A stretch of 64,000 nucleotides of DNA, taken from the IMG/VR virus record IMGVR_UViG_3300036770_007703, positions 1 through 64,000 of that record; one strand, 5' to 3'. This stretch comes from a virus. Of the stretch, positions 13,902-61,186 are shown piece after piece. A program made the translations under genes and the position numbers. How positions within the stretch are numbered: the first letter of the stretch is position 1; each line of letters begins with the position of its first letter. Under the pieces are notes generated by a model. That model was not told the origin of the DNA, ran no database searches, and saw only the letters and a program-made list of their open reading frames with translations.

Positions 13902-13905
13902 ATGC

Positions 13906-13925
13906 TAAATATCCGGGTAAAGGAG
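13906..13925 (+). promoter_or_regulatory. Late promoter core and Shine-Dalgarno of the lysis gene
   Basis: TAAATA at 13906-13911, then AAAGGAG at 13919-13925, 6 nt before ATG 13932. The leader would be very short but includes the ribosome site. Confidence 0.6.
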
Positions 13926-13931
13926 ACTATT

Positions 13932-14396
13932 ATGCAACTCACCCAAAATTTCAGTCTGGCCGAGATGGTCAAAAGCGAAACTGCACTGCGTCGCGGTCTA
14001 GACAACACACCCGGTGATACCGAGATTGAAAATCTACGCACATTATGCGAGCAAGTGTTACAACCCTTGCGTGATGCCTATGGACGAGGCATCAAAGTAA
14101 ACTCGGGATTCCGCCACCCCGACGTCAACGCTGCCGTGGGCGGTAGCCGCACATCGGACCACTGCAAGGGCATGGCCGCTGACATCGAGATTCCTGGAGT
14201 CCCCAACTATGACTTGGCTGCATATATTGAGCAATATTTTGATTTCACTCAACTTATTCTTGAGTTTTATACTCCTGGTATACCCGACTCGGGTTGGGTA
14301 CACGTCAGCTACGACCCCAACAACCTCAAAAAGCAGGTCATGACAGCCATGCGCGAAAACGGCAAGACTGTTTACAAACAAGGATTGATAGCCTGA
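13932..14396 (+). CDS. M15-family zinc endopeptidase (endolysin)
   Basis: 154 residues from ATG 13932 (strong Shine-Dalgarno upstream). Motifs of peptidase M15_3: 'I-K-V-N-S-G-F-R-H-P-D-V-N', 'S-x-x-S-D-H-C-K-G-M-A-A-D' (zinc His and Asp of H-x6-D) and 'G-W-V-H-V-S-Y' (third zinc His). It cleaves peptide cross-links of the cell wall. No signal peptide is seen, so export needs the holin. It is followed by spanin-like and lipoprotein genes, which supports a lysis role. Confidence 0.85.
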   Translation: MQLTQNFSLAEMVKSETALRRGLDNTPGDTEIENLRTLCEQVLQPLRDAYGRGIKVNSGFRHPDVNAAVGGSRTSDHCKGMAADIEIPGVPNYDLAAYIEQYFDFTQLILEFYTPGIPDSGWVHVSYDPNNLKKQVMTAMRENGKTVYKQGLIA

Positions 14397-14397
14397 C

Positions 14398-15048
14398 ATG
14401 ATCGGCATCGGTGGTGCCATCAAGGCCATATCAGCATTGTTGATCGTGGCCATCATAGCCGCAGGCGGGTGGTACATCACCGGCCTGCGAGCCGATCTAG
14501 CCATAAGCCAATCCAACGAAGTCAAGCTGCGAGAAGGCATCGAAGAGCAACAACGACTCATGGAAAAGATGCGTGTAGACATCGCGGCCATACAGCGTGC
14601 CAATAATCAGCTCAATGAAACCATCAAACGCCAGGCCGAGGATGTCACGGCACTGACAAAGAAATTCAGCCAGGATCGACAAGGCAATGCCCGAGATTTT
14701 GGTGAGTTTGCCAGTACCAAGCCCGAGTTGGTGCAAAATCTAGTGAATCGTGGCACCAAAAATGCCTATCGCTGCATGGAGATCGCATCAGGTTCACCGC
14801 TCACAGACGAAGAGCGGTCGGCCACTACCCGAGACAAAATCAACCGCGAATGTCCCAGCATCGCCAATCCCAATTATCGCGGTGGTGCCTTGGATGCTGT
14901 GGTAAAGTCGGCCGAGCGTGCGAGCGAACCTGTTCGGCCCGCCACGGTTGAAACAGTGGCACCAAAAACAGAGAGCGCACCTGCTGCTCCGGTACGCACA
15001 GCACCGCCCCCGCCAGTGCGACCACCTCCGCCGGGAGCCAAGAAATGA
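14398..15048 (+). CDS. Inner-membrane spanin-like protein (Rz type)
   Basis: 216 residues. One N-terminal transmembrane helix (about 6-29), then a long charged coiled coil (about 40-100), a region with two Cys (near 125 and 148), and a Pro/Ala-rich tail (180-216). This layout, directly after the endolysin and overlapping a lipoprotein gene by 4 nt, fits an i-spanin that bridges the periplasm. The assignment rests on topology and context, since spanins are poorly conserved in sequence. Confidence 0.6.
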   Translation: MIGIGGAIKAISALLIVAIIAAGGWYITGLRADLAISQSNEVKLREGIEEQQRLMEKMRVDIAAIQRANNQLNETIKRQAEDVTALTKKFSQDRQGNARDFGEFASTKPELVQNLVNRGTKNAYRCMEIASGSPLTDEERSATTRDKINRECPSIANPNYRGGALDAVVKSAERASEPVRPATVETVAPKTESAPAAPVRTAPPPPVRPPPPGAKK

Positions 15049-15440
15049 TGCACAAGTTGATGACGATGGCTGTGTTGGTGCTGGCATTGCCAGGCTGCGC
15101 TGTGTTGCCCAACATCTGGGGCAAGTCCACAGAGCCGGTGGTGATAAAAAAAGAAGAAGTGGCTCGCACACCTTTGAACTTGCCCGACCCCGGTGCTCTC
15201 AAAACCACACCAGTGACTTGGATCGTGGTGACTCCTGAAAACATCAATCGTGTTTGGGAAGAGTTGCGCAACAAAAAAGCCGATCTAGTGTTGTTTGCTC
15301 TCACCGACGATGGTTACGAACAACTTTCCATAGATTTCGCACAGATCCGCAACTTCATCGAACAACAACGTCAAGTGATCGTGGAATATCGACGCTATTA
15401 CGAACCCGCCAAACCCGATCCCAAGGAAAGTAAAAAATGA
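15045..15440 (+). CDS. Outer-membrane lipoprotein in lysis cassette, possible o-spanin
   Basis: 131 residues. Signal peptide with lipobox 'L-A-L-P-G-C' (Cys19; start 15045, or 15048 one codon later). The mature part contains 'L-N-L-P-D-P-x-x-L-K-T-T-P-V-T-W-I-V-V-T-P-E-N' and 'V-L-F-A-L-T-D-D-G-Y-E', a pattern I recall from small phage proteins next to lysis genes. Overlap with the spanin-like gene suggests it is the o-spanin partner; size is larger than a classical Rz1, so a separate envelope role remains possible. Confidence 0.6.
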   Translation: MMHKLMTMAVLVLALPGCAVLPNIWGKSTEPVVIKKEEVARTPLNLPDPGALKTTPVTWIVVTPENINRVWEELRNKKADLVLFALTDDGYEQLSIDFAQIRNFIEQQRQVIVEYRRYYEPAKPDPKESKK

Positions 15441-16094: not shown

Positions 16095-16862
16095 ATGCGT
16101 GTCATAGCCGGTCCTTGTCAGCACGAAAATCTCGCACACAGTCTCAAAATAGCCGAGCATTGCGCTCGCGTGTGTTCAAGACACGGTGTCGAATATTTTT
16201 TCAAAGCCAGTTATGACAAGGCCAATCGCAGCAGCGCTCTAGGAGTGCGTGGTCGCGGCATCGAACAGACCATGTACGATTTCACCAGCATGAAAGAACA
16301 GATGCCGGGCATACGCATACTCACCGACATACATGAACGACAGCACATAGACTACATCATGACCAAATGGCGCGATTCGGTGGATGTGTTACAGATACCC
16401 GCATTTCTATGCCGCCAAACCGACCTCGTTCAAGCAGCATGCGACACTGGTAAAATCGTGAACATCAAGAAAGGTCAGTTCTTGGCACCCTGGGACGTGG
16501 CCGGTATACTCACCAAGACCCAGGGCGAAGTATGGATCACCGAACGCGGTACCAGCTTTGGCTACAACACCTTGGTGGTAGATTTTACCGGCATCGATTA
16601 CATGTTGAATCACTACGATGTGCCCATAGTTTTTGACGTCACGCATGCGGTACAAAAACCCGGGGGCAATGGCATGAGTTCGGGCGGTAATCGAGACTAT
16701 GTTCCTGGTCTGACACGGGCTGCCGCGGCCTTGGGAGTGCGCAACTTCTTCATGGAGGTGCACGACGATCCCGATCAAGCTCCCAGTGATGGTGCCAACA
16801 TGCTGCGGCTAGACGACTTTGAATCAGTGATAGGAGCCATGGTGAGACATGCAAATGCCTGA
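16095..16862 (+). CDS. kdsA: 3-deoxy-D-manno-octulosonate 8-phosphate synthase (KdsA-like)
   Basis: 255 residues. 'A-G-P-C-Q-H-E-N' at 5-12 and 'F-K-A-S-Y-D-K-A-N-R-S-S' at about 36-47 are hallmarks of KDO-8-P synthase. Downstream are 'Q-I-P-A-F-L-C-R-Q-T-D-L', 'I-K-K-G-Q-F-L-A-P-W', 'E-R-G-T-S-F-G-Y-N' and 'V-F-D-V-T-H-A-V-Q', all in family order. It condenses PEP with arabinose 5-phosphate to make KDO-8-P for LPS inner core. It is about 30 residues shorter than E. coli KdsA at the N-terminus, but all motifs remain. It lies inside the lysis cassette. Active enzyme likely; biological purpose inferred. Confidence 0.88.
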   Translation: MRVIAGPCQHENLAHSLKIAEHCARVCSRHGVEYFFKASYDKANRSSALGVRGRGIEQTMYDFTSMKEQMPGIRILTDIHERQHIDYIMTKWRDSVDVLQIPAFLCRQTDLVQAACDTGKIVNIKKGQFLAPWDVAGILTKTQGEVWITERGTSFGYNTLVVDFTGIDYMLNHYDVPIVFDVTHAVQKPGGNGMSSGGNRDYVPGLTRAAAALGVRNFFMEVHDDPDQAPSDGANMLRLDDFESVIGAMVRHANA

Positions 16863-17226
16863 GATCGAAATGTATCATGGCATGGGCGCACTGTTGGCCG
16901 TGGTGGTGGGTGTGCTGGTGCTGATCCTTTGGAATTTCCAGCGCGATCGAGACAATCGCGTGGACATCAAGGATCTCATCTGCACCGATGGCGCCATCGA
17001 TGACAACAAATTTTTCCGTTTCACGGCCTGGCTGGTGTCGACCTGGGGATTCGTGTATCTCATAGTGGACCAGAGATTCAGCGAATGGTATTTTACCGGA
17101 TACATGGCCGCTTGGGTGGGCAATGCTCTGTTTGCCCGATATCTGGAATCTCGCGACACCAATTCACGCAAATCATCACCACCAACACCGCCAAAACCTA
17201 GCACTCCGTCCACAGACGTGCTATAA
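16849..17226 (+). CDS. Holin-like inner-membrane protein
   Basis: 125 residues. Three hydrophobic segments: about 12-30 ('G-A-L-L-A-V-V-V-G-V-L-V-L-I-L-W'), 58-74 and 80-97 ('Y-F-T-G-Y-M-A-A-W-V-G-N-A-L-F'). The C-terminal tail is polar and Pro/Ser/Lys rich. Such a topology next to lysis genes fits a holin, but the type is assigned by context only. It overlaps kdsA by 14 nt; a second Met two codons in is an alternative start. Confidence 0.5.
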   Translation: MQMPEIEMYHGMGALLAVVVGVLVLILWNFQRDRDNRVDIKDLICTDGAIDDNKFFRFTAWLVSTWGFVYLIVDQRFSEWYFTGYMAAWVGNALFARYLESRDTNSRKSSPPTPPKPSTPSTDVL

Positions 17227-17234: not shown

Positions 17235-18032
17235 GTGAAAGACCTATATCAGATACTGGGTGTGCCAAGATCGGCCAGCGGCGAAGAAATCAAGCGGGCC
17301 TACCGTCGCCTGGCCAGCCAGCATCACCCCGACAAAGGTGGGGACAAATCAGTTTTCCAGGACATACAACAGGCCTACAGCATACTCAGCGACCCTGTTC
17401 AGCGTCAGCAGTACGACAATCCCGAACCTCGCATGCAGTTCAATCGTGGCCGGGGCGCTGGTCCCATGTGGAACTTCGATGACATCTTTGAAATGTTTGG
17501 CGCTCGCATGTCACCCGAGCAGGAGTTTGGTCGTGGCCGCATATCACACATACAACTCTGGATCAATCTCGAAGACGCACTGGGTGGTGAACCCAAACTC
17601 GTGAGCTTGGCCACTCCGGGCGGGCAGACCACTGCCGAAATAAACATACCACCCGGCATACAAGACGGTGATGCTGTGCGCTATGCTGGACTGGCACCTG
17701 GTGGCATGGACGTGGTGTGTACTTTTCGATTGCGCCCGCATCCGCAATGGCAGCGAGAAAATGACAATCTCATAACCGAAGTGCGAGTGGATTTTTGGCA
17801 ACTGATCGCGGGTACCACTCTCAATCTCAAGACCATTACTGGCACCATGGTCAGCGTGACCATACCCGAAAAAACCGATCCCAGCACTGTGCTGCGGGTG
17901 CGTGGCCATGGTATGCCGCGCAAACACAACGCTGCCCAGCGCGGAGACCTCATGCTGAAGCTGCAGGCGCAAATGCCCAAAGAAATACCCGATGATTTGC
18001 TACAGAGAATACGTTTGATCAACCCCCAATAA
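17235..18032 (+). CDS. DnaJ-like co-chaperone (type II J protein)
   Basis: 265 residues with GTG start. J domain at residues 1-65 with H-P-D at 31-33 ('Q-H-H-P-D-K-G-G'). A short Gly/Phe/Arg linker follows, then two C-terminal beta domains ('I-N-I-P-P-G-I-Q-D-G', 'L-R-V-R-G-H-G-M-P'). The zinc finger is absent, so it resembles CbpA. J proteins stimulate DnaK ATPase; the phage protein probably redirects host DnaK. It adjoins deformylase and ClpA genes, forming a protein-maturation block. Confidence 0.9.
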   Translation: MKDLYQILGVPRSASGEEIKRAYRRLASQHHPDKGGDKSVFQDIQQAYSILSDPVQRQQYDNPEPRMQFNRGRGAGPMWNFDDIFEMFGARMSPEQEFGRGRISHIQLWINLEDALGGEPKLVSLATPGGQTTAEINIPPGIQDGDAVRYAGLAPGGMDVVCTFRLRPHPQWQRENDNLITEVRVDFWQLIAGTTLNLKTITGTMVSVTIPEKTDPSTVLRVRGHGMPRKHNAAQRGDLMLKLQAQMPKEIPDDLLQRIRLINPQ

Positions 18033-18035
18033 ATA
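18030..18035 (+). promoter_or_regulatory. Late promoter core, leaderless type
   Basis: TAAATA uses the dnaJ stop (TAA) and ends 5 nt before ATG 18041. Only T residues lie between, so no Shine-Dalgarno exists. Confidence 0.6.
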
Positions 18036-18040
18036 TTTTT

Positions 18041-18487
18041 ATGAAGCTGGATGACTCGATTTTACATGACACAGTACCGCACACCGAGCTGGGCAGCCTG
18101 ATGTCCAATCGCAGACTGGCCGATCGCATGTTCCGGGTCATGCGTCGCGAAGGTGGTATCGGTCTTGCAGCCACTCAAGTGGGCGTGGCCAAACGCATGT
18201 TTGTGATGGAGGTGCAGGGCCGTGACCGTGCTTGCTGGAATCCAGAAATCCTGGATTCCAGTTCCGAACAACAAGAATCGGTGGAAGGTTGTTTGAGTTT
18301 TCCCGGAGACTCGTGTACAATCAAAAGACCAACCACTGTGCGAGTGAGGTATTACAACTGTGCTGGGAAACTGCAAGAAGAAACGCTGACGGGTCTAGAA
18401 GCTCGATGTTTCCAACACGAGCTGGATCATCTAGACGGAATAACCATGTGGGATAGACAGAGAGAGCAGAATGCAACAAAATCCTGA
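18041..18487 (+). CDS. def: Peptide deformylase
   Basis: 148 residues. All three family motifs are intact: 'G-I-G-L-A-A-T-Q-V-G' (39-48), 'E-G-C-L-S-F-P-G' (82-89, metal ligand Cys84) and 'H-E-L-D-H-L-D-G' (126-133, metal His and catalytic Glu). It removes N-formyl from nascent proteins. Phage deformylases are known in marine T4-like phages. It overlaps the ClpA gene by 17 nt. Confidence 0.93.
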   Translation: MKLDDSILHDTVPHTELGSLMSNRRLADRMFRVMRREGGIGLAATQVGVAKRMFVMEVQGRDRACWNPEILDSSSEQQESVEGCLSFPGDSCTIKRPTTVRVRYYNCAGKLQEETLTGLEARCFQHELDHLDGITMWDRQREQNATKS

Positions 18488-20750
18488 AATTGAAGCCATC
18501 ATCGAATTCGCGGTCAACCTGGCACGCGAAAAAAATCATCAATACGTGGTCACCGAACATCTGCTCATGGCCTTGATATGCCATCAGCCCTTTCAAAAAG
18601 TCATGGCCAAGTTTGGCATCGATGTCGACAAAATGGCCAGCGAGCTCAACGGTTACCTCGACAGTCTCACCAGCATCCATACCCGAGATTCCGATACTGT
18701 GCCCAAGAAAACACATGCTCTAGAGCGCATCTTCAATCGAGCCCTCACACAGGTATTGTTCACTGGTCGTCGACATGTCACCACCGGTGATCTCTATCTC
18801 GCTATCATGAGCGAGACCAATAGCCATGCACACTACTATCTGCTCAAGTACGGTGCCACCAAACAAGAATTCATCAAGTTCTGGGATCAAAACTACAATC
18901 ACAATCACAGCGACATGCCCATCACCAATGAACAAGCCGATGAGATACTCAACGAATACTGTGTTAACATCACCGAACTCTCCAAAAAGAATAGCCTAGA
19001 ACCCGTGATCGGGCGCGAGCATGACATCGATGAGATGGTGGCTGTGCTGGCACGCAGGTTCAAAGCCAATGTGCTGTTGGTGGGCGATCCCGGTGTGGGC
19101 AAAACTGCGCTCATCGAAGGTCTAGCACAACGCATCACTGCCGGCGAGGTGCCGCGTTTCCTCAAAGATCATGAAATATGGAGCCTGGAGATCGGCAGTC
19201 TCTTGGCCGGCAGCAAATATCGCGGCGACTTTGAAGAAAAGCTCAAGAGCGTGATCATGGCCTTGGAAACCAAAAAGAAATGCATATTGTTCATCGACGA
19301 AGCACACACCATGCGCGGAGCAGGTGCTTCGGGCAACAGCACCATGGATTTTGCCAACATGATCAAGCCCGCTATCACCAAGGGCAGTCTCAAAGTAGTG
19401 GCCAGCACCACCTGGGAAGAATTCTACGAGAGCTTTGAAAAAGATCGTGCCCTGATGCGCAGATTCCATAGACTGGGAGTGGACGAGCCCACAGCATCCG
19501 TGACCGAAAAAATCCTGATCGGACTCAGCCCCAGGCTGGAACAATTCCATGATGTCATGATCGACACCGAGGCCATCACCACCGCGGTAGAACTCAGTGC
19601 CAGATATCTCACCGATCGTAAAAATCCCGACAAGAGCATCGATCTCTTGGATGCCGCGTGTGCTCGCGAGCGTGTGCGAGACAGCGGTACAGTGACCGTG
19701 ACACGCGAGATGATACAACAACAATTGAGCCGCGTGACCGGTGTGCCCATGGATCGCCTCACCAACAACACCACTTCCAAGATACGCGACCTCGAGCGCA
19801 ACATCAAACAGCATCTATACGGCCAGGACTCGGTGGTGGATTCAGTGTTGGAGCGAGTGTATGTGAGTTTCGCCGGCATTGGATCATCGCGTCGGCCCAT
19901 GGCCAGTTTCTTGTTCTTGGGTCCCACTGGCACCGGCAAGACCGAATTGGCAAGACTGTTGAGCCAGCACTTGGACATGCACTTGCTGAAATACGACATG
20001 AGCGAGTATCAAGAGCGACACACTGTGTCGAGCCTGATAGGAGCGCCTCCGGGCTATGTGGGTTTCGAAGATGGCAACTTGTCAGGCGGCAAACTGATTT
20101 CAGATCTCTCCAAGCATCCTTTTGCCATCATCCTGTTCGACGAGATCGAAAAAGCGCACCCCGATGTCAGCAATATCTTGTTGCAGATGCTGGACGAGGG
20201 TCGGGTCACAGGCAGCAACGGCAAGACCGTGGACTGCAAGAACACCATCATCATCATGACATCGAACCTGGGTGCCAGAGACAACGAAAACAACAACATC
20301 GGCTTTGGCCACAGTCTAGAAAAGACCGGTGAAGAAGATCGTGCAGTCAAAGATTTCTTCCGGCCTGAGCTGCGCAATCGCATCGATTCGATCTGCAAGT
20401 TCAATCGATTGGAAAAACTCAGTATCAAGAAGATCGTGGTCAAGTTCGTTGACGAATTGCGCAACAGTTTGTCGACCCGGGCCATTGGTGTCAATCTCAC
20501 CGAACCCGCGGTGGAATACCTGGCCCAGGTGGGATATGATCCAAAGATGGGCGCCCGTCCCCTGGGTCGCAAGATCGACGAGCTCTTGCGTGTGCCCATC
20601 AGTAAAAAAATACTGTTCGAGGATCTCCGCGACACTGACCTCACCGTGGACTATCGTGATCAAAAAATAGAAATCGATGTACGACCCGCACGCACCGTGG
20701 CATCGGCCACCATCGATGAAGATGGCATCATACATGTCGGCGAAACATGA
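18471..20750 (+). CDS. clpA: ClpA-type AAA+ unfoldase
   Basis: 759 residues, the usual ClpA length. N-terminal Clp_N repeats (about 1-150), first AAA+ with 'G-D-P-G-V-G-K-T' near 205-212 and 'I-L-F-I-D-E-A-H', second AAA+ with 'G-P-T-G-T-G-K-T' near 483-490 and 'F-D-E-I-E-K-A-H-P-D-V'. It lacks a ClpB middle coiled coil. An 'I-G-F' tripeptide at about 610-612 sits where ClpA/ClpX carry the ClpP-docking loop. It could therefore feed substrates to host ClpP. No phage ClpP or ClpS gene is visible in the window. Confidence 0.93.
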   Translation: MQQNPEIEAIIEFAVNLAREKNHQYVVTEHLLMALICHQPFQKVMAKFGIDVDKMASELNGYLDSLTSIHTRDSDTVPKKTHALERIFNRALTQVLFTGRRHVTTGDLYLAIMSETNSHAHYYLLKYGATKQEFIKFWDQNYNHNHSDMPITNEQADEILNEYCVNITELSKKNSLEPVIGREHDIDEMVAVLARRFKANVLLVGDPGVGKTALIEGLAQRITAGEVPRFLKDHEIWSLEIGSLLAGSKYRGDFEEKLKSVIMALETKKKCILFIDEAHTMRGAGASGNSTMDFANMIKPAITKGSLKVVASTTWEEFYESFEKDRALMRRFHRLGVDEPTASVTEKILIGLSPRLEQFHDVMIDTEAITTAVELSARYLTDRKNPDKSIDLLDAACARERVRDSGTVTVTREMIQQQLSRVTGVPMDRLTNNTTSKIRDLERNIKQHLYGQDSVVDSVLERVYVSFAGIGSSRRPMASFLFLGPTGTGKTELARLLSQHLDMHLLKYDMSEYQERHTVSSLIGAPPGYVGFEDGNLSGGKLISDLSKHPFAIILFDEIEKAHPDVSNILLQMLDEGRVTGSNGKTVDCKNTIIIMTSNLGARDNENNNIGFGHSLEKTGEEDRAVKDFFRPELRNRIDSICKFNRLEKLSIKKIVVKFVDELRNSLSTRAIGVNLTEPAVEYLAQVGYDPKMGARPLGRKIDELLRVPISKKILFEDLRDTDLTVDYRDQKIEIDVRPARTVASATIDEDGIIHVGET

Positions 20751-21454
20751 TCAAAAAAATCCAAACCAGCCAACTGTTTTTCAACCAGTATCGCTGGGGT
20801 GCCGATGTTTATCTCACCGGCATCAGTTGTCTCCGGGGTTGGAAAAACACCGATCACTTCGACGAAAAAAATCTCGCCAGGGTACTGTCTCGCCGGCGAT
20901 CGGCCTGGATATATGTGAGCCAAAGACCACACAATGTGGTGGGATCATGGGGCGACCCCACCACTGACCCACAGCTCTTTGTCGAGTCTGCGCGACAACT
21001 GCAAAAACTGCATGTCCTGCTGAAACATCATCGCGAGCGTATAAAATTCACTGTGGGCTTTGATCATGGATATGTTTACACCAATGGTCAAGATGTGTTG
21101 GACGACATTTCTTCCTTGGATTTTTTGCGCATGACCAATGTGCGCGAAGCCGTGGTCACGCTGCCACGTGACACTGTGCTGTTGCGTGAAACCGAGCATA
21201 ATCTGCGCACATATTTCCGAGAGAAAAGCCTGGATCGAGGCACGGCTGCTGCCCTCAAGAAATTTCTCAGCTCACAAAAACACATGCGGCTGGGGCCCAG
21301 CTTGAAAAATTGGTGTGGTAGCCATGAAAAAGACATATATACTCGCAGCCATTGGTTCCTGGATCACGAAACTGTGCAGGATCTCATGCTGCTAAACATC
21401 GTGTGCCACAACATCGTGAGGCGGACGATACCCATCATAAAGGTAAATAATTGA
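20747..21454 (+). CDS. Conserved phage protein, unknown function
   Basis: 235 residues, overlapping clpA by 4 nt. Basic, with a C-terminal segment 'H-E-K-D-I-Y-T-R-S-H-W-F-L-D-H-E-T' and 'L-N-I-V-C-H-N-I-V-R-R'. Predicted mixed alpha/beta. Coupling with clpA suggests related expression, but nothing identifies an adaptor role. Confidence 0.6.
   Translation: MIKKIQTSQLFFNQYRWGADVYLTGISCLRGWKNTDHFDEKNLARVLSRRRSAWIYVSQRPHNVVGSWGDPTTDPQLFVESARQLQKLHVLLKHHRERIKFTVGFDHGYVYTNGQDVLDDISSLDFLRMTNVREAVVTLPRDTVLLRETEHNLRTYFREKSLDRGTAAALKKFLSSQKHMRLGPSLKNWCGSHEKDIYTRSHWFLDHETVQDLMLLNIVCHNIVRRTIPIIKVNN
21444..21449 (+). promoter_or_regulatory. Late promoter core, near-leaderless
   Basis: TAAATA ends 7 nt before ATG 21457; no Shine-Dalgarno is seen between. 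It starts the short structural operon 21457-22422. Confidence 0.5.
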
Positions 21455-32428: not shown

Positions 32429-32601
32429 GAGCTCGAGAATTCATACGCGAAAACTCAGACAGTGTCACCAGCGGTGACATAGCCACAGCAGCGGCACCCA
32501 TTGGTGGAGTTATTAGTCGCATGTTGAAACCAGTGACAACTAAATATAGAAATGCTGTGACAAATTACACCCTGGAAAAGACAAAAAATGTTGGTAGATG
32601 A
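32425..32601 (+). CDS. 58-residue protein with capsid-targeting-like leader
   Basis: Begins M-R-A-R-E-F-I-R-E-N, the clearest copy of the leader. After it comes 'S-G-D-I-A-T-A-A-A-P-I-G-G-V-I-S-R', seen in short proteins of other T4-like marine phages, and a basic C-terminus. It overlaps the Dps-like gene by 14 nt and contains a late core for it. Inferred head-internal peptide precursor. Confidence 0.65.
   Translation: MRAREFIRENSDSVTSGDIATAAAPIGGVISRMLKPVTTKYRNAVTNYTLEKTKNVGR
32541..32546 (+). promoter_or_regulatory. Late promoter core inside the upstream small gene
   Basis: CTAAATA 41 nt before ATG 32588 of the Dps-like gene, preceded by no other promoter. The leader has only a weak GGAA-like ribosome site. 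Confidence 0.5.
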
Positions 32602-33031
32602 CCTCAAAACACTGTTGGCCACGCAATATGCGTTCGTGATCAAAGCACAGTTCTTCCACTGGAACGTGGAAGGTCCTGACTTTGCACAATTACATCGATT
32701 CTTTGGCAAGATCTACGAAGAGGTGTACGAAAACAGCATAGACCAGACCGCAGAATTCATACGCATACTCGACGACTACACACCTGGCAGTTTTGAGAGA
32801 TTCGGCGAGCTCAGCCTCATCACTGGACAGATCAAGGTACCGCGTGCCAGTCTCATGATCCAGGAGCTCTTGGCCGACACACAGACCTTGATCGATCAGC
32901 TCAACACCACGTTTGATGCAGCCGAGGCCGAAGATCAACAGGGCATCATGGACTTCCTGGCCGGACGAATCGACGCCATGGGCAAACACCGTTGGATGCT
33001 GAAGAGTTTCCTGAAAGAAGATCGAGCATGA
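32588..33031 (+). CDS. Dps-like ferritin-fold protein
   Basis: 147 residues. 'F-F-H-W-N-V-E-G-P-D-F-A-Q-L-H' at about 22-36 is the Dps ferroxidase/ DNA-protection signature, followed by 'Y-E-E-V-Y-E-N-S-I-D-Q-T-A-E-F-I' carrying the D-x3-A-E pattern. Dps proteins store iron, limit Fenton damage and may bind DNA. It sits among candidate head-packaged genes but lacks the leader. Iron site residues look present; DNA binding unproven. Confidence 0.8.
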   Translation: MLVDDLKTLLATQYAFVIKAQFFHWNVEGPDFAQLHRFFGKIYEEVYENSIDQTAEFIRILDDYTPGSFERFGELSLITGQIKVPRASLMIQELLADTQTLIDQLNTTFDAAEAEDQQGIMDFLAGRIDAMGKHRWMLKSFLKEDRA

Positions 33032-41220: not shown

Positions 41221-42111
41221 GTGTCCAATCAAGCGCGGATCACACTGACTTCGCCCGATGGCAAGGATTCGGTGTGGGCCACCATCAACCTCATTGACAA
41301 TCCCGGAGTGCAGGCCTGGCAACAAGCCGTGAGGAAGAATCCCCGGCAGCGTGATGTTTTGCCCATGCATCGATTCCGAGAACCCTATGCTCGAGATCCG
41401 CAGTTCGATCGAGCATATCGAGATCTCTTGATCGTGGCCCACCAGTTAAAGGACACCGATTATGCACTGCCCGAACCAGTGCCCTCGGTGCAGGAAATAT
41501 CACAGCCGTGGTGCAATCGTGCGCATCGGCATTTCACTCACGCACATCAACGATTGACCGAAAACTACAGCTGGGATCACCCGCACTATGTGAAACACTA
41601 TCCGTTGCTGTCGCGATTGAACGATCATGTACACATGGTAGAGATATATCATGATTGTTGGCCGCGGCACATGAACACTTGGTTCACTCCACACATCACT
41701 TGCTTGGCCAACATGGACTACGAAGCTGTGCCGATTCCTGATGCTGGTCAGTATCACAGCTGGCAACATCATGACGTGATACTGGATGCCTACATCTTGG
41801 GCAAGACCACTATATGCAGTTTCCTCGACGACGACGATCCTCGAGATTGGGATACCACCGGACATCACATCACTGCCGGTGGATTCATGATACTGTTTGA
41901 CGATCATCGCCAGAAAATCTATCAAAGTCCGGAGTTCCAGGCATGGCTGTCTAAATACCAGGTCACCAAGCAAGATATTCCCGGAGACTTTCCCTTGGGA
42001 AATCTGGATCCAGCTCACCGACAACGGTTGCAGCAGTTTTGGCCACGCATGGATCCAAATTGGCGATGCGACATCGAATTGACCGTTGACCATCACAGAG
42101 AAACATGTTAG
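41221..42111 (+). CDS. Hypothetical protein, His/Trp-rich
   Basis: 296 residues with GTG start. Rich in His, Trp and Asp ('H-R-H-F-T-H-A-H-Q-R', 'G-Q-Y-H-S-W-Q-H-H-D-V-I-L-D-A-Y-I'), with 'G-G-F-M-I-L-F-D-D-H' near 218. Several paired His might bind metal, but no catalytic pattern is established. Its 3' end contains the -35 of the polymerase promoter. Family unknown. Confidence 0.6.
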   Translation: MSNQARITLTSPDGKDSVWATINLIDNPGVQAWQQAVRKNPRQRDVLPMHRFREPYARDPQFDRAYRDLLIVAHQLKDTDYALPEPVPSVQEISQPWCNRAHRHFTHAHQRLTENYSWDHPHYVKHYPLLSRLNDHVHMVEIYHDCWPRHMNTWFTPHITCLANMDYEAVPIPDAGQYHSWQHHDVILDAYILGKTTICSFLDDDDPRDWDTTGHHITAGGFMILFDDHRQKIYQSPEFQAWLSKYQVTKQDIPGDFPLGNLDPAHRQRLQQFWPRMDPNWRCDIELTVDHHRETC

Positions 42112-42114
42112 AAT
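42086..42114 (+). promoter_or_regulatory. Sigma70-like promoter (TTGACC-17-TAGAAT) for polymerase
   Basis: TTGACC 42086-42091 and TAGAAT 42109-42114, spaced exactly 17 nt. A start near 42121 gives a leader with GAGGG before TTG 42137. Confidence 0.65.
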
Positions 42115-42125
42115 AACTCATCAAC

Positions 42126-42130
42126 GAGGG
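42126..42130 (+). promoter_or_regulatory. Shine-Dalgarno deciding the polymerase TTG start
   Basis: GAGGG lies 6 nt before TTG 42137. The other in-frame TTG (42086) overlaps the upstream gene and the -35, so 42137 is favoured. Confidence 0.6.
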
Positions 42131-42136
42131 AAAACA

Positions 42137-44797
42137 TTGAGCTACATTGACGCTTTATACGACCGAGAACGCGATCGCATACATGTGGTAGGGCGACGGG
42201 ATGGCGAACGCTATTACGAAGAGTTTCCGGCCAACTATGTGTTTTACTACGACGATCCGCGAGGCAAATTCCGCAGCATCTATGGCAACCCAGTAAGCAG
42301 ATTCAGCACACGCAACAACAAAGAGTTCCGCAAAGAATTGGCCATACAAAAAGGCAAACGCTGTTACGAAAGTGACATCAATCCGGTGTTCCGTTGCCTG
42401 GAAGAGAATTACAAAGGTGTCGATGCTCCCAGGCTGCACACAGCGTTCTTTGACATCGAAGTAGACTTTGATCCCGAGCGTGGGTTCTCGCGCCCCGAAG
42501 ATCCCTTCAATCCCATCACTGCTATTTCGGTGTACATGGACTGGTTGGATCGACTGGTGACTTTGGTGATCCCACCTCGTTCCATGAGTCGTGAAACAGC
42601 TCAAGAGATCGCGGCCGAGTTCGAAGACACCTTCGTGTTCGAGCAGGAATCACAACTGCTGGATGCGTTCCTCAACATCATCGAAGATGCCGATGTGTTG
42701 AGTGGTTGGAACTCCGAGGGTTATGACATACCTTACACCGTGCAACGCATCACACGGGTGCTGTCAAAAGATGACACGCGGAGATTTTGTCTCTGGCATC
42801 AATTGCCCAAACAGAGGACTTTCGAGCGCTTTGGTGCCGAAAACATCACGTTTGATCTCATAGGTCGTGTGCATCTCGACTACATGCAACTGTACAGGAA
42901 ATACACCTACGAAGAGCGACACAGCTACAGCCTGGATGCCATTGGTGAATACGAAGAGCTGGGGAGCAAGACTGCGTTCGAAGGCACCCTGGATCAGCTC
43001 TACAACCAAAACTGGAAGACATTCATCGAGTACAACCGGCAAGATGTCCGGCTCCTGGCCAACATCGACAAAAAACTCCGGTTCCTGGATCTAGCCAACA
43101 CGCTGGCACATGAAAACACTGTGCTCCTGCCCACCACCATGGGTGCGGTGGCTGTCACAGAGCAGGCCATCATCAATGAAGCACACGAACGTGGCATGGT
43201 TGTGCCCAATCGTCGAGATCAACTGTCAGACGAAGAGACACAGGCCGCTGGCGCTTATGTGGCCTATCCCAAGAAAGGCATGCATGACTGGGTGGGATCG
43301 ATAGACATCAATAGTCTATATCCATCTACCATCCGGGCCCTGAACATGGGACCCGAGACCATCGTTGGTCAGCTTCGGCCCACGATGACCGATCGTTACA
43401 TACGCGAACGACAACAAGGTGGCATGAGCTTTGCGGCTGCTTGGGAAGGCCTGTTTGGAACGCTGGAGTACACGGCCGTGATGGAGCAACAGCGAGGCAC
43501 AGAGATCACCATCGACTGGGCACAGGGCGGGGATGATGTGCTCAGTGCCGCTGAAGTATGGCAACTGATATTTGACAGCAATCGACCCTGGATGCTTTCG
43601 GCCAATGGCACCATATTCACCTACGAGACTGAGGCAGTGATCCCTGGCTTGTTGAAACGCTGGTATGCAGAACGCAAAGAAATGCAAGCCAAACTCAAGG
43701 AGTCGACTACAAAAGAAGACGAGGAATACTGGGACAAAAGACAGCTGGTCAAGAAGATCAATCTAAATAGTCTGTATGGAGCTATCTTGAATCCCGGCTG
43801 TAGATTTTTTGACAAACGCATCGGTCAGAGCACCACGCTCACGGGCCGGGCCATCGCACAGCACATGGATGCCTATGTCAACGAGTGCATCACCGGAAAG
43901 TATGATCACGTGGGCGAAACCATCATCTACGGTGACACAGACTCGTGTTACTTCTCGGCCTGGCCTGTGCTACGCAAAGAAGTGGAGGCCGGCCACATGC
44001 AGTGGAGCAAAGAGACCTGCATCCAGCTCTATGATGGCATCGCCGAACAAGTGAACCAGAGCTTCCCGGGATTCATGGAGCGTGCTTTCCATGTGCCGCG
44101 TGAGATGGGCAGTGTGATCCGAGGCGGTCGCGAAGTTGTGGCCAGCCGGGGCTTGTTCATCACCAAGAAGCGTTATGCTGTGATGATCATTGACAAAGAA
44201 GGCAAACGCATCGATGTCAACGGTCGCCCCGGTAAAGTCAAGGCCATGGGTCTGGATCTCAAGCGCAGTGACACACCTCGTGTGATCCAGGACTTCCTCA
44301 GCGATCTCCTGGAACGTGTGCTAAATGGATCTCAGCGCGACGAGATCGTGGAAATCGTCAAGGAGTTCAAGTATGCGTTCAAAGAGCGTCCAGGCTGGGA
44401 GAAAGGTTCGCCCAAGCGTGCCAACAACATCACACAATATGCCAAGAAAGAAGAACGCGAAGGCCGAGCCAACATGCCGGGACATGTGCGTGCCAGCTTG
44501 AACTGGAATACCATGCGCCGAATGAACAGCGACAACTACTCGATGCAGATCGTGGATGGCATGAAAGTGATCGTGTGCAAGCTCAAGTCAAATGCCTTGG
44601 GCTGGACATCGATAGCTTATCCCACAGATGAACTGCATCTACCCACGTGGTTCAAAGAACTACCGTTTGATGACGGAGAGATGGAAGCCACCATCATTGA
44701 CGGCAAGATCGATAACCTCTTGGGTGTGTTGGATTGGGATCTAGAATCTGCCACCAATACCGACAACACTTTCCAGACCTTGTTCGAATTCCAATGA
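42137..44797 (+). CDS. 43: Family-B DNA polymerase (gp43-like)
   Basis: 886 residues (T4 gp43: 898), TTG start. ExoI 'F-F-D-I-E-V-D-F' at 104-111, ExoII 'L-S-G-W-N-S-E-G-Y-D-I-P-Y' near 193-205, ExoIII 'Y-N-R-Q-D-V'. Polymerase motif A 'D-I-N-S-L-Y-P-S' near 391, motif B 'K-K-I-N-L-N-S-L-Y-G' near 538, motif C 'Y-G-D-T-D-S' near 598. Both proofreading and polymerase sites look intact. It replicates the phage genome with the gp44 loader and gp45 clamp. Confidence 0.96.
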   Translation: MSYIDALYDRERDRIHVVGRRDGERYYEEFPANYVFYYDDPRGKFRSIYGNPVSRFSTRNNKEFRKELAIQKGKRCYESDINPVFRCLEENYKGVDAPRLHTAFFDIEVDFDPERGFSRPEDPFNPITAISVYMDWLDRLVTLVIPPRSMSRETAQEIAAEFEDTFVFEQESQLLDAFLNIIEDADVLSGWNSEGYDIPYTVQRITRVLSKDDTRRFCLWHQLPKQRTFERFGAENITFDLIGRVHLDYMQLYRKYTYEERHSYSLDAIGEYEELGSKTAFEGTLDQLYNQNWKTFIEYNRQDVRLLANIDKKLRFLDLANTLAHENTVLLPTTMGAVAVTEQAIINEAHERGMVVPNRRDQLSDEETQAAGAYVAYPKKGMHDWVGSIDINSLYPSTIRALNMGPETIVGQLRPTMTDRYIRERQQGGMSFAAAWEGLFGTLEYTAVMEQQRGTEITIDWAQGGDDVLSAAEVWQLIFDSNRPWMLSANGTIFTYETEAVIPGLLKRWYAERKEMQAKLKESTTKEDEEYWDKRQLVKKINLNSLYGAILNPGCRFFDKRIGQSTTLTGRAIAQHMDAYVNECITGKYDHVGETIIYGDTDSCYFSAWPVLRKEVEAGHMQWSKETCIQLYDGIAEQVNQSFPGFMERAFHVPREMGSVIRGGREVVASRGLFITKKRYAVMIIDKEGKRIDVNGRPGKVKAMGLDLKRSDTPRVIQDFLSDLLERVLNGSQRDEIVEIVKEFKYAFKERPGWEKGSPKRANNITQYAKKEEREGRANMPGHVRASLNWNTMRRMNSDNYSMQIVDGMKVIVCKLKSNALGWTSIAYPTDELHLPTWFKELPFDDGEMEATIIDGKIDNLLGVLDWDLESATNTDNTFQTLFEFQ

Positions 44798-53204: not shown

Positions 53205-53244
53205 TCTTGTACAATAACAGCATGGCGATCCACCGCCCTAACTC

Positions 53245-53248
53245 GGAG
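53245..53248 (+). promoter_or_regulatory. Shine-Dalgarno favouring the folE ATG at 53255
   Basis: GGAG lies 6 nt before ATG 53255, while the earlier in-frame ATG 53222 has no ribosome site. Confidence 0.5.
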
Positions 53249-53254
53249 ACTGTA

Positions 53255-53953
53255 ATGGAAAATGGGAAATACCTCAGCGATATTATCCGCAAGAACATGC
53301 GGGACAACAACAAACGATTCTGGGCCGGAGACAACATCTCCGACTATGTGCGTGACACAGATGTACCGTTCCTGATAGACGAAGCCACCGAAGCCTTTGA
53401 ACTGGTGTTGGATCGGCTCCTGATCGATAGAGAAACCGATCCCAACTCAAAGGGCACAGCACGCAGATTGGCCAAGATGTACTACAACGAGATCATGGCC
53501 GGTCGCTATGATGCCGCGCCTGATTGCACAGCGTTTCCCAATGATTCAGAGGATAGATATGAAGGAATGTTGGTGGTGCGGAGCGAAATCCGCAGCATGT
53601 GCAGCCATCATCACCAACCTGTTGTGGGTGTGGCTTATATTGGCATATTGGCTGCTCACAAGCTCATCGGGCTTTCCAAATATACCCGGATCGCCCAGTG
53701 GTGCAGCCGGCGTGGCACGCTACAGGAAGAACTCTGCAACGACATCGCCAGAGAGATCATGAAGGTCACTGACAGCCAGGACGTGGGAGTGTATATCCAA
53801 GCCACCCACGGCTGTTGCGAGAATCGTGGCATCATGGCACATTCCAGCCTCACCCAGACCACTGTGCTACATGGCATGTTCAAGACCGATCCTGCCGTGA
53901 AAAAAGAGTTCATCGACAACATCAAACTACAGCAGGACTTTGCACCAAGATGA
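53255..53953 (+). CDS. folE: GTP cyclohydrolase I (FolE)
   Basis: 232 residues from ATG 53255 (53222 possible, adding 11). Zinc/catalytic motif 'M-C-S-H-H-H-Q-P-V-V-G' near 109-119, 'I-G-L-S-K-Y-T-R-I' and 'A-T-H-G-C-C-E-N-R-G-I' near 178 with the second zinc Cys. It converts GTP to dihydroneopterin triphosphate, the first step to 7-deazaguanines and folates. With QueD-like and QueE nearby, the deazaguanine route is favoured. Confidence 0.9.
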   Translation: MENGKYLSDIIRKNMRDNNKRFWAGDNISDYVRDTDVPFLIDEATEAFELVLDRLLIDRETDPNSKGTARRLAKMYYNEIMAGRYDAAPDCTAFPNDSEDRYEGMLVVRSEIRSMCSHHHQPVVGVAYIGILAAHKLIGLSKYTRIAQWCSRRGTLQEELCNDIAREIMKVTDSQDVGVYIQATHGCCENRGIMAHSSLTQTTVLHGMFKTDPAVKKEFIDNIKLQQDFAPR

Positions 53954-54345
53954 CAGATCTAGAACAAGCCCAACAACAACGAATAGCACCCTGGGATGAC
54001 GTGGTATGGGAGGACTTCCATGTCACGGTGTTTCGTGATCGGTATCCCGTGACTCCCGGCCATTTGTTGTTTGTGCCCAAATACAACAACAACGGCGTGA
54101 TACGCGAAGCACTGGCCAGTGCCCAGATCGAAGGAGACAACATGGTAGCCCGTGGCGACTGCGACGGCTACAACATCGGTCTCAACCAGGGACGATCGGC
54201 CGGACAAACAGTGATGTACCCTCATGTGCATCTCATTCCGCGACGCACCGGCGACTGCGCCGACCCCACAGGTGGTGTTCGTGGTGTGATACCCACTCAA
54301 CAGAATTACAAAAACACAGACTACAAAGATCCCACAGGTAAGTAA
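53950..54345 (+). CDS. HIT-family protein
   Basis: 131 residues from ATG 53950 overlapping folE. 'N-I-G-L-N-Q-G-R-S-A-G-Q-T-V-M-Y-P-H-V-H-L-I-P-R-R' contains the HIT core (histidines in H-V-H-L-I-P) although the first His of the triad is replaced by Tyr. HIT proteins hydrolyse or transfer nucleoside phosphates. 'F-R-D-R-Y-P-V-T-P-G-H' is the usual N-terminal strand. Substrate unknown; activity may be altered. Confidence 0.75.
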   Translation: MTDLEQAQQQRIAPWDDVVWEDFHVTVFRDRYPVTPGHLLFVPKYNNNGVIREALASAQIEGDNMVARGDCDGYNIGLNQGRSAGQTVMYPHVHLIPRRTGDCADPTGGVRGVIPTQQNYKNTDYKDPTGK

Positions 54346-54431
54346 CTGCTCAGCGGTCTCTCAATGACGCTCATCCCGCTCTATAAATTCTGCGTGTCAT
54401 CAAACTTGCCCCTTATCACAGGAGACTAGAG
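54346..54431 (+). promoter_or_regulatory. 86 nt gap with possible late-type element
   Basis: CTATAAATTC at 54381-54390 holds TATAAATT, one base from the T4 late consensus TATAAATA, about 42 nt before ATG 54432; AGGAG precedes the ATG. No terminator hairpin with a T-run is seen. Confidence 0.35.
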
Positions 54432-54947
54432 ATGGCAAAATTCTATTCAACAAAAACCTATGGCAATGATCGCGGACTCAGCTGTTGTTTCCGGCAGTGG
54501 AGATCCACTCACAGTCATTGTTCTACCTTGCATGGATACAGCATAGGTATACGATTGATCTTTGAAAGCGAAACACTAGATGAACGCAACTGGGTCATGG
54601 ACTTCGGTGGACTCAAAGACTTCAAGGCCTGGGCCGACTACATGTTTGATCACACTCTGGTCATTGCCGAGGATGACCCGCATCTAGACTTTTTTAAAAT
54701 GATGGCCCAGCAGGTCACTGCGGGGTCCGAGAATCCCAACAGCTTTGTTCCACACGAGCGAGGAGCATTGTGCGACTTGCGTATAGTGCCAGCTGTGGGC
54801 TGTGAAATGTTTGCCAAACTGGCCTATGACAAAATGGCCGAATTGCTAAAGTCCGGCAAATCTAGGTATGTTATCAACCCAGGAGTTCGTGTAAAATCAG
54901 TTGAAGTATTCGAACACGGCGCCAACTCAGCGATCTACGAGGGCTAA
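54432..54947 (+). CDS. QueD-like (6-carboxytetrahydropterin synthase family), divergent zinc site
   Basis: 171 residues. 'S-T-H-S-H-C-S-T-L-H-G-Y' near 25-36 parallels the QueD catalytic Cys and 'L-H-G-H', 'W-V-M-D-F-G-G-L-K' and 'F-D-H-T-L-V' parallel 'I-D-F-A-x-L-K' and 'L-D-H-x-x-L', and 'S-V-E-V-F-E-H-G-A-N-S-A-I-Y' the C-terminal Glu motif. Two of the classic zinc His (A-A-H and the second H of L-H-G-H) appear changed to Phe and Tyr; neighbouring His could substitute. It fits the preQ0 pathway, or a QueD-derived branch enzyme. Confidence 0.78.
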   Translation: MAKFYSTKTYGNDRGLSCCFRQWRSTHSHCSTLHGYSIGIRLIFESETLDERNWVMDFGGLKDFKAWADYMFDHTLVIAEDDPHLDFFKMMAQQVTAGSENPNSFVPHERGALCDLRIVPAVGCEMFAKLAYDKMAELLKSGKSRYVINPGVRVKSVEVFEHGANSAIYEG

Positions 54948-58427: not shown

Positions 58428-59315
58428 ATGGAAAAAATCACTTACACTGAAATCTTTTACAGCCTGCAAGGCGAGGGCAAATGGGCCGGTGTGCCCTCGG
58501 TGTTCTTCCGCACATACGGTTGCAACTTCCGTTGCCGCAAGTTTGGTCGCACAGACGACTTCGAAGGGCACAACCCCGAAGTGGTGGACATCATCAAGAT
58601 GGTGCAAGCCGAGCCCGAGAAATACAAAAAGTTCGAAGACTTGCCCCTTGTGACCACAGGCTGCGATACCTATGCCAGCATCTATCCCGAATTCAAGAGT
58701 TTCAACGAACAGGATGATGTTGACACCATCGTGGATCGCATGCATGCCTTGATTCCCAACAACACCTGGGACCAAGGCTGGAACGATGATGTGCATCTCG
58801 TGATCACGGGTGGAGAACCACTCTTGGGTTATCAAAAATTGTATCCCGAGATGCTTCAACGCTGCCGAGACAATGGTCTACGCAACCTCACATTTGAGAC
58901 CAACGGCAGCCAGGAGCTCTATCCCGAAGTCGAACGATATCTCTTTGAAGAATTTACACGCAACGGTAGAGACTATGATCGGCTCACATTCAGTGTCAGC
59001 CCCAAATTGCCCTGTTCGGGTGAGCGGTGGGAATCGGCTATCAACCCCAAGGTGGTCAAAAGCTACGAGATGGTGGGTATGACCTATCTCAAGTTTGTAG
59101 TGGCCACGAGGCAGGACGTAGAAGATGCTGAACGTGCTGTCACAGAGTTCCGCGAAGCCGGCTTTGGTGGACCGGTGTATCTCATGCCCATGGGCGGTGT
59201 GCCGCAGGTTTACAATCTCAACACACAAGAAGTGGCTCGCTTGGCCATGGAGCGAGGTTGGCGCTACAGTCCCAGGCTGCAAGTGGATATCTGGAGGAAC
59301 GCATGGGGAACTTGA
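58428..59315 (+). CDS. queE: QueE-like 7-carboxy-7-deazaguanine synthase with split radical-SAM motif
   Basis: 295 residues. '[18 protein letters not shown]' near 12-29 is the QueE substrate signature. The first two radical-SAM Cys are Cys32 and Cys36 (G-C-N-F-R-C), but the third, in 'G-C-D-T-Y-A' , is Cys79: 42 residues lie between Cys36 and Cys79 instead of two. 'V-I-T-G-G-E-P-L-L' and 'F-E-T-N-G-S-Q' follow as normal. It makes CDG from carboxytetrahydropterin using SAM and an Fe-S cluster. Overlaps nadE by 13 nt. Confidence 0.88.
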
Positions 59316-60070
59316 CCACCAAACAACGCATCAAATCCATCACTGGCTGGATCAAAGACTACGCCAAGAAAAATCGCATCAAGACCTTGGTGGTAGGAGT
59401 TTCTGGCGGCATCGATTCCGCAGTGGTCAGTGCCTTGTGTGCTCGCACTGGCTTGCCCACCATCGCAGTGAGCATGCCCATCCATCAGAGCAAAAAGACA
59501 CACAGCCTTAGCGTGGCCCACGGTGCTTGGTTGAGAGAAAATTTTGAAAACGTGCGGCACGAGACTGTAGATCTCACACCCACGTTCCGGCAGTTTGAAC
59601 GACTGTTTGATGGCGGATCCGAGCTGGGCTTGGCCAACAGCCGTGCCCGACTCAGGATGATGTGCCTATACCAGACTGCACAAGATGCTGGTGGTATCGT
59701 GGTAGGCACCGGTAACCGTGTGGAAGACTTTGGTGTGGGCTTCTTTACCAAGTACGGTGATGGCGGTGTGGATATCAGCCCCATCGGCGACTGTCTCAAA
59801 ACCGAAGTCTGGGCCATGGGACGCGAGTTGGGCATTCTCGACGAAATCATCGATGCACCCCCCACTGACGGTCTCTGGGCCGATGGACGCACCGACGAAA
59901 CACAATTGGGCATGACCTATCCCGAACTGGAAGAGGCCATGCAGCTGGACGAGGTCGCCGAGACCGCTGACCTAGATCGCGGGCAACGAGCAAGGTTGAA
60001 ACGCTATCGAGAGATCCGTGCCCGTAACTTGCACAAGATGCTGCCCATCCCGGTGTGCAAGATAGATTAA
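59303..60070 (+). CDS. nadE: NAD synthetase (NadE-like)
   Basis: 255 residues from ATG 59303 with GGAGG upstream. PP-loop 'S-G-G-I-D-S-A-V' at 34-41, '[10 protein letters not shown]' near 112, '[20 protein letters not shown]' near 136 and 'A-P-P-T-D-G-L-W' with 'D-E-x-Q-L-G' near 185. These are NadE motifs. It amidates nicotinic-acid adenine dinucleotide to NAD, using ammonia (no glutaminase domain). It is not QueC, which has a different C-terminal Cys zinc site. Confidence 0.92.
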
Positions 60071-60085
60071 AAAGAAAGGCAACAC

Positions 60086-61186
60086 ATGAGTTATCTGTTT
60101 ACCAGCGAAAGCGTCAGTGAAGGTCATCCCGACAAAGTGGCCGATGCCATCTCGGATGCAGTGGTGGATTATTTCATGGAGCAAGGCACCGATCGTGTGC
60201 GATGTGCCTGTGAGACCTTGGTCACCACAAATCGCGTGATCATTGCCGGCGAGTACAAAGGCGAATTTGATGCCGGCAACATCGAAGATCGCATACGCGA
60301 AACCGTGCGCGGCATTGGCTATCATCAGAGCGGATTTGATGCCGACACTTTTACATTCACCAACCTCATGCACGGTCAGAGCGCGGACATCGCCTTGGGC
60401 ACCGATTCGTTTGGTGCCGGAGATCAAGGACTCATGTTTGGCTATGCATGCAAAGAAACCGATGCTTACATGCCTGCAGCCATTTACTGGAGTCATCGCA
60501 TCGTGGAAACACTGGCACAACTGCGCCACGGTGGCAAGATGTCATGGCTGGGACCCGATGCCAAAAGCCAGGTCACGTTCGAATACAACGACAGCGGAGT
60601 ACCAACTCGGGTGGCTCGAGTGGTGTGTAGCACGCAGCACGAAGAAGGCATGAACATCGAATCTCTTCGACATGCTGTGGAAACCGTGATACGATCAGTG
60701 TTGCCGCAAAAATACATAGACTCCAACACTGAATTTTACATCAATCCCACGGGACGGTTCGTTATAGGTGGGCCCGATGGCGACACTGGTGTCACGGGAC
60801 GCAAGATCATCGTGGACACTTATGGTGGTTCAGCACCGCATGGCGGAGGTGCATTTTCTGGCAAAGATCCCACCAAAGTGGATCGCAGTGCTGCCTACAT
60901 GATGCGTTACATTGCCAAGAACATCGTGGCCTCGGGACGAGCATCATGGGCCACCTGCCAAATCAGTTATGCCATTGGTGTATCCCAGCCCATGAGTTTT
61001 TACATCGAGTGTGATGACACAGCATTGGCAAGAGACTTGACATTACTGATTCCAAAGGTAGTAGACTTGACTCCTCGGGGAATCATCGAGCGCTTTGATC
61101 TTTTCCGACCCATATATCACAACACCACTAATTACGGACACTTTGGAAAACCAGGATTGCCCTGGGAAAAAATCGATTTGTTCTAA
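60086..61186 (+). CDS. metK: S-adenosylmethionine synthetase
   Basis: 366 residues (bacterial MetK about 384). 'F-T-S-E-S-V-S-E-G-H-P-D-K-V-A-D' at the start, 'G-A-G-D-Q-G-L-M-F-G-Y-A' near 110-121, 'G-G-G-A-F-S-G-K-D-P-T-K-V-D-R-S' near 252-267 are all intact. It makes SAM from methionine and ATP. With ahcY it would complete both sides of SAM turnover for QueE and methyltransferases. AAAGG precedes the ATG. Confidence 0.95.
   Translation: MSYLFTSESVSEGHPDKVADAISDAVVDYFMEQGTDRVRCACETLVTTNRVIIAGEYKGEFDAGNIEDRIRETVRGIGYHQSGFDADTFTFTNLMHGQSADIALGTDSFGAGDQGLMFGYACKETDAYMPAAIYWSHRIVETLAQLRHGGKMSWLGPDAKSQVTFEYNDSGVPTRVARVVCSTQHEEGMNIESLRHAVETVIRSVLPQKYIDSNTEFYINPTGRFVIGGPDGDTGVTGRKIIVDTYGGSAPHGGGAFSGKDPTKVDRSAAYMMRYIAKNIVASGRASWATCQISYAIGVSQPMSFYIECDDTALARDLTLLIPKVVDLTPRGIIERFDLFRPIYHNTTNYGHFGKPGLPWEKIDLF

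What the first reader, a model, noticed from the sequence alone, without database searches (positions are those of the whole stretch)
17235..20750. DnaJ, deformylase and ClpA cassette with ClpP-docking tripeptide
Three protein-quality genes are adjacent. ClpA keeps both ATPase sites and I-G-F at the position of the ClpP loop, but no ClpP or ClpS is visible. The phage may redirect host ClpP and DnaK, for instance to degrade host or antiphage proteins or remodel virion proteins.
Basis: partly seen in the sequence, partly recalled or inferred. Interest (0 to 1): 0.72.

Follow-up and report, generated by a model that had tools for sequence, protein, structure and literature searches.

The report
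Part of a phage's own protease
A fragment of a giant bacterial virus carries a co-chaperone, a protein-finishing enzyme and the ClpA unfolding motor; its relatives carry the matching ClpP protease and ClpS adaptor elsewhere in their genomes, so the virus probably brings its own protein-destruction machine rather than borrowing the bacterium's.

Summary
dnaJ (17235-18032), def (18041-18487) and clpA (18471-20750) are intact, closely spaced genes. ClpA has both ATPase sites and an IGF tripeptide (20298-20306). No ClpP or ClpS lies in the window or in the whole 85-kb record.

That absence is best explained by the record being a fragment. It is collinear with a relative (G004) that carries clpP1, clpP2, clpS and clpX 49-71 kb upstream of clpA, beyond the left end of our record. 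All 8 relatives of 300 kb or more encode ClpP1, ClpS and ClpX. All 7 isolate phages with a ClpA homologue also encode ClpP and ClpS; 0 of 8 large phages without ClpA encode ClpS.

IGF is invariant in 73 of 73 phage ClpAs within a variable loop, so the motor is evidently selected to dock on a ClpP, most likely the phage's own. Borrowing host ClpP is less likely, though not excluded. Recruitment of host DnaK remains plausible (HPD kept in 77 of 78).

The kind is known: phage ClpA is PHROG 4871, the cassette is annotated in Sinorhizobium phage Phosso, and Atu_ph07's Clp set is published. Less noted are the strict ClpA-ClpP-ClpS co-occurrence and a second ClpP with an intact triad but degraded docking pocket.

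The parts
17235..18032 (+). dnaJ-like gene: class B (CbpA/DnaJ-B type) J-domain protein, 265 aa, GTG start
   Evidence: Pfam DnaJ and DnaJ_C, no zinc-finger domain; HPD in 77/78 homologues and no CXXC pair in any
17325..17333 (+). HPD tripeptide of the J domain (residues 31-33)
   Evidence: read directly; conserved 77/78
18041..18487 (+). def: peptide deformylase, 148 aa, all three motifs (GIGLAATQ, EGCLS, HELDH)
   Evidence: Pfam 3.9e-41; motifs
18471..20750 (+). clpA: two-ring AAA+ unfoldase, 759 aa; overlaps the end of def by 17 bases
   Evidence: Pfam, PDB ClpA 2e-177, PHROG 4871 9e-238
18471..18896 (+). ClpA N-terminal domain (ClpS-binding domain in E. coli)
   Evidence: Clp_N; matches the E. 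coli ClpA N-domain chain at 3e-14 over residues 4-138
19083..19106 (+). D1 Walker A GDPGVGKT
19284..19310 (+). D1 Walker B ILFIDEAHT
19920..19943 (+). D2 Walker A GPTGTGKT
20127..20162 (+). D2 Walker B IILFDEIEKAHP
20298..20306 (+). ClpP-docking tripeptide I-G-F (residues 610-612)
   Evidence: invariant 73/73 in a variable loop; the loop (602-625) is a low-confidence flexible segment in the model
20747..21454 (+). conserved gene of unknown function overlapping the end of clpA by 4 bases
   Evidence: found downstream of clpA in most relatives, 21-34% identity; no family match
16849..17226 (+). small membrane protein gene directly upstream of dnaJ
   Evidence: PHROG 1322; present in some relatives
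13902..15440 (+). lysis genes upstream: endolysin and two Rz-like spanins (context)
   Evidence: PHROG 894, 739, 812
42086..44797 (+). DNA polymerase, anchor for synteny; five relatives carry clpP1 at about +18 kb from clpA, beside this gene in those inspected, and this phage does not

Best explanation
The three genes are the dnaJ-def-clpA part of a dispersed, phage-encoded Clp system in a giant phage of which we hold about a quarter. ClpA forms a hexamer that unfolds substrates and threads them, docked through its IGF loops, into a ClpP; the most likely partner is the phage's own ClpP1, encoded outside the record, with a phage ClpS as adaptor. The J protein probably recruits host DnaK to keep substrates soluble or to fold virion proteins. 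The deformylase finishes newly made proteins. The likely job is late-infection protein quality control, and possibly clearance of host proteins, while very large amounts of virion protein are made. Shown: gene content, motif integrity, IGF conservation, synteny, and co-occurrence in relatives. Inferred: that this phage has ClpP and ClpS, that the complex forms, its substrates and its timing.
For: Window 19-68,871 is collinear with G004, where clpP1, clpP2, clpS and clpX lie 49-71 kb upstream of clpA. All 8 relatives of at least 300 kb with this ClpA have ClpP1, ClpS and ClpX. Isolates: ClpA present in 7, all 7 with ClpP and ClpS; among 8 without ClpA, 0 have ClpS and 1 has a strong ClpP (Fisher p = 1.6e-4 and 1.4e-3). 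IGF 73/73 invariant; isolates keep IG plus a hydrophobic residue. ClpP1 keeps the Ser-His-Asp triad in 17/17 and most docking-pocket residues, and ClpA and ClpP1 identities correlate (Mantel r 0.56, 0/5000 permutations as high). Phage ClpAs lie on one side of a fully supported branch, so this is an old phage gene.
Against: ClpP and ClpS were not seen in this phage; only 85 kb of a probably 300-350 kb genome is held. In 7 of 21 relatives clpP1 sits at a position our record covers (18-32 kb downstream of clpA), and it is absent there, so loss in this phage cannot be ruled out. The Mantel correlation also reflects shared descent. The isolates compared are partly related to each other and few. No expression or interaction data exist.
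Confidence: 0.75

Rival explanations
1. Phage ClpA docks on host ClpP and redirects it to phage-chosen substrates.
For: No ClpP in the 85-kb record; IGF is also the commonest docking tripeptide found in the bacterial ClpAs compared (49 of 80), so cross-docking is plausible.
Against: Close and distant relatives carry their own ClpP and ClpS.
Confidence: 0.12
2. ClpA works without any ClpP as an unfoldase or disaggregase with the J protein and host DnaK, for instance to remodel virion proteins.
For: Tight dnaJ-clpA linkage in 78 of 80 loci and in Phosso, Atu_ph07 and MIJ3; flanking structural or tail genes in isolates.
Against: The IGF tripeptide would not be expected to stay invariant in a variable loop; the ClpB-type middle domain that couples to DnaK is absent; ClpP co-occurs.
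Confidence: 0.1
3. The genes are a recent, incidental capture from the host with no fixed role.
For: def is patchy, 15 of 80 loci.
Against: Phage ClpAs form their own branch apart from bacterial ClpAs; best bacterial identity is only about 42%; gene order is conserved.
Confidence: 0.03

Closest known systems
Escherichia coli ClpA / ClpAP-ClpS
   Same: Domain order N-D1-D2, Walker motifs, pore loops, docking loop, no middle domain
   Different: About 40% identity; IGF instead of IGL; in related phages most ClpS proteins read NDN where E. coli ClpS reads NDD by my own knowledge
Sinorhizobium phage Phosso dnaJ-def-clpA (PV764938) and phage AP-J-162 (PMC11242549)
   Same: Exactly the same three-gene order in Phosso, with ClpP, a second weaker ClpP and ClpS elsewhere; AP-J-162 has adjacent deformylase gp154 and DnaJ gp155 and six Clp genes
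   Different: Different lineage; Phosso ClpA only 40% identical
Agrobacterium phage Atu_ph07 Clp set (PMC6102473)
   Same: dnaJ-clpA adjacent, plus ClpX, ClpP, ClpS, ClpB reported in the paper
   Different: No def between dnaJ and clpA
Moraphages (PMC12619734) and bS21 huge phages (PMC9723584)
   Same: Moraphages: ClpA in the core gene set, DnaJ common. bS21 phages: Hsp20 and Clp genes near bS21, as in our relatives
   Different: Whether this phage belongs to either group was not tested
RB43 Rki J protein (PMC3486835)
   Same: Phage J-domain protein shown to act on host DnaK
   Different: No ClpA partner gene described in its abstract; architecture of Rki not compared here

Membership tests
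ClpA (Hsp100 class I unfoldase) | N-domain plus two AAA modules with intact Walker A/B and pore loops | tested here: met
ClpA (Hsp100 class I unfoldase) | No ClpB/ClpC-type middle domain | tested here: met
   single collinear alignment to E. coli ClpA 4-731, 759 vs 758 aa
ClpA (Hsp100 class I unfoldase) | IG-hydrophobic ClpP-docking loop in D2 | tested here: met
   IGF 610-612, 73/73 in relatives
ClpAP protease | ClpP partner encoded by the same genome | tested here: inconclusive
   absent in the 85-kb fragment; present in 8/8 relatives of at least 300 kb and 7/7 isolates
ClpAP protease | Physical complex and ATP-dependent degradation | not testable with these tools
   needs biochemistry
ClpS adaptor system | ClpS encoded and ClpA N-domain present | tested here: inconclusive
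   N-domain present; ClpS not in the fragment but in relatives
J-domain protein, class B | J domain with HPD, C-terminal substrate domain, no zinc finger | tested here: met
Peptide deformylase | Three metal/active-site motifs | tested here: met
   GIGLAATQ, EGCLS, HELDH
PHROG 4871 phage ATP-dependent protease | Match to family profile over full length | tested here: met
   9e-238, residues 4-738

The most novel reading that the evidence does not exclude
This phage clade carries a self-contained Clp machine in which ClpA and ClpX dock on a standard-like ClpP1, while a second, catalytically intact ClpP2 with a degraded docking pocket joins it as the other ring of a phage-specific ClpP1P2 particle, making an asymmetric protease unlike the host's.
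Probability: 0.3. Interest if true: 0.62.

Novelty: new member of a known kind. Interest (0 to 1): 0.38.

Why it matters
It changes the question from how the phage hijacks host ClpP to why giant phages bring a whole Clp system. A protease under phage control could clear host or defence proteins, time the switch to late genes, or handle misfolded virion proteins. The association ClpA-ClpP-ClpS in several phage lineages makes this testable in cultured phages of laboratory strains.

Tried and rejected
Late-promoter-like motifs (ATAAATA, CTATAAT) near dnaJ and def: not more frequent than chance. Defence-system models: only AAA-domain matches to ClpA, none to DnaJ or Def. Looking for ClpP beside the DNA polymerase, as in G005-G009: absent here. 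Predicting the ClpA fold: moderate quality (pLDDT 75.5, pTM 0.54); useful only to show the IGF loop is flexible. Literature searches for phage-encoded ClpP by that phrase: none held. The G006 clpP1 position was counted as downstream by joining the record's ends; if the record is not circular it is unplaced.

Full report
What is there. The window is bases 1-64,000 of an 85,288-base virus record classed as linear. dnaJ (17235-18032), def (18041-18487) and clpA (18471-20750) lie on the same strand; dnaJ and def are 8 bases apart, clpA overlaps def by 17, and the next gene overlaps clpA by 4, which fits one co-translated unit. All three are well supported by Pfam. ClpA aligns to E. coli ClpA from residue 4 to 731, matches PHROG 4871 at 9e-238, and has intact Walker motifs in both rings. 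The J protein has the HPD motif and a C-terminal domain but no zinc finger, so it is class B (CbpA-like) rather than DnaJ proper.

Docking loop. In 73 ClpA sequences (this one and 72 from related viral contigs, list) the tripeptide IGF is invariant, while most residues around it between 602 and 628 vary. In six more distant isolate phages the tripeptide reads IGF, IGF, IGF, IGY, IGV and IGM. A predicted model has low confidence for residues 602-625, as expected of a flexible loop. This pattern is expected if ClpP docking is under selection. It does not by itself say whose ClpP.

Whose ClpP. The 85-kb record has no ClpP, ClpS or ClpX zinc finger. Relatives do. Of 50 records with a related ClpA, 22 carry a ClpP family match; counting one found later (G052), all eight records of 300 kb or more with this ClpA carry a full ClpP1 (E 1e-64 or better), all eight carry ClpS and a ClpX zinc-finger protein, and seven of eight a second ClpP. 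The window is collinear with relative G004 from base 19 to 68,871. In G004 clpP1, clpP2, clpS and clpX lie 49 to about 71 kb upstream of clpA; our record starts only 18 kb upstream. In 14 of 21 relatives clpP1 lies at a position our record would not cover; in seven (one clade of five, plus G040 and G044) it lies 18-32 kb downstream, where our record has none. So the phage probably has ClpP beyond its left end, but loss is possible.

Independent check. Six complete or near-complete isolate phages found through ClpA all carry ClpP and ClpS. Nine large or classical phages were then taken from memory without looking at their Clp genes, although RaK2 was already known from a paper to belong to a group with ClpA (a tenth accession is not held). 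Only RaK2 has a full ClpA, and only RaK2 has ClpS; strong ClpP occurs in RaK2 and in Bacillus phage G, where weak AAA+ matches lie in a neighbouring 449-residue frame. ClpA with ClpS: 7 of 7 against 0 of 8, p = 1.6e-4. The phages are not fully independent lineages, so this p-value is optimistic.

Origin. Phage ClpAs fall on one side of a branch with full support, bacterial ones on the other, and the best bacterial identity is about 42%. The tree is unrooted with long branches among isolates, so a single phage origin is likely but not proven. The exact dnaJ-def-clpA order in Phosso and dnaJ-clpA in Atu_ph07 and MIJ3 point to an old linkage; def is the optional member (15 of 80 loci).

A second ClpP. 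ClpP2 is widespread: 260 viral stretches encode a relative. Its Ser-His-Asp triad is invariant in 27 of 27, and its predicted model has the ClpP fold (pLDDT 83; best solved matches are all ClpP). Positions that in E. coli ClpP form the hydrophobic docking pocket (my own knowledge of that structure) are kept at most sites in ClpP1 but mostly replaced in ClpP2 (F82 to S, L114 to T, Y62 to M, L189 to S). In 9 of 13 records clpP2 is within about 4 kb of clpP1. A mixed particle docking through the ClpP1 face is one reading; a separate role in head maturation is another. Neither was tested.

Function. The kind of evidence here cannot name substrates. The genes follow lysis genes and in isolates neighbour structural genes, so late expression is plausible but not shown. 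Related phages also carry a clpX-bS21-Hsp20-clpS cluster, echoing the bS21 phages, whose bS21 is expressed late (PMC9723584). Published remarks on Atu_ph07 already propose roles in assembly, replication and aggregate clearance (PMC6102473), and a phage J protein acting on host DnaK has been shown for RB43 (PMC3486835).

Verdict. This is a new member of a known kind, with two less-noted points: strict co-occurrence of ClpA, ClpP and ClpS, and the docking-pocket-poor ClpP2.

Noticed in passing
relatives, e.g. L214:14953-15528 (-) and L251:7001-7573: Second ClpP paralogue with invariant catalytic triad but degraded unfoldase-docking pocket; 260 viral stretches encode a relative.
   Followed up: partly
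L215:10878-13195 (-): Cluster clpX, ribosomal protein bS21, Hsp20 and clpS in the collinear relative G004.
   Followed up: partly
window 16095-16862: DAHP/KDO-8-phosphate synthase-like gene between the lysis genes and dnaJ; found in only a few relatives, there on the other strand.
   Followed up: no
window 53207-54947 and 58428-59315: GTP cyclohydrolase I and a PTPS/QueD-like gene, with a 58428 gene that looks QueE-like by eye but has no Pfam match: possible 7-deazaguanine pathway.
   Followed up: partly
window 59258-61186: NAD synthase and S-adenosylmethionine synthetase genes side by side.
   Followed up: partly
window 32588-33031: Ferritin/Dps-like gene in a phage.
   Followed up: no
L001:13499-14032 (record 77499-78032): AhpC/TSA peroxiredoxin gene.
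   Followed up: no
ClpS of relatives (L203-L208, L215-L227): Most read NDN where E. coli ClpS has NDD, while the His of the N-degron pocket is kept; substrate preference may differ.
   Followed up: no
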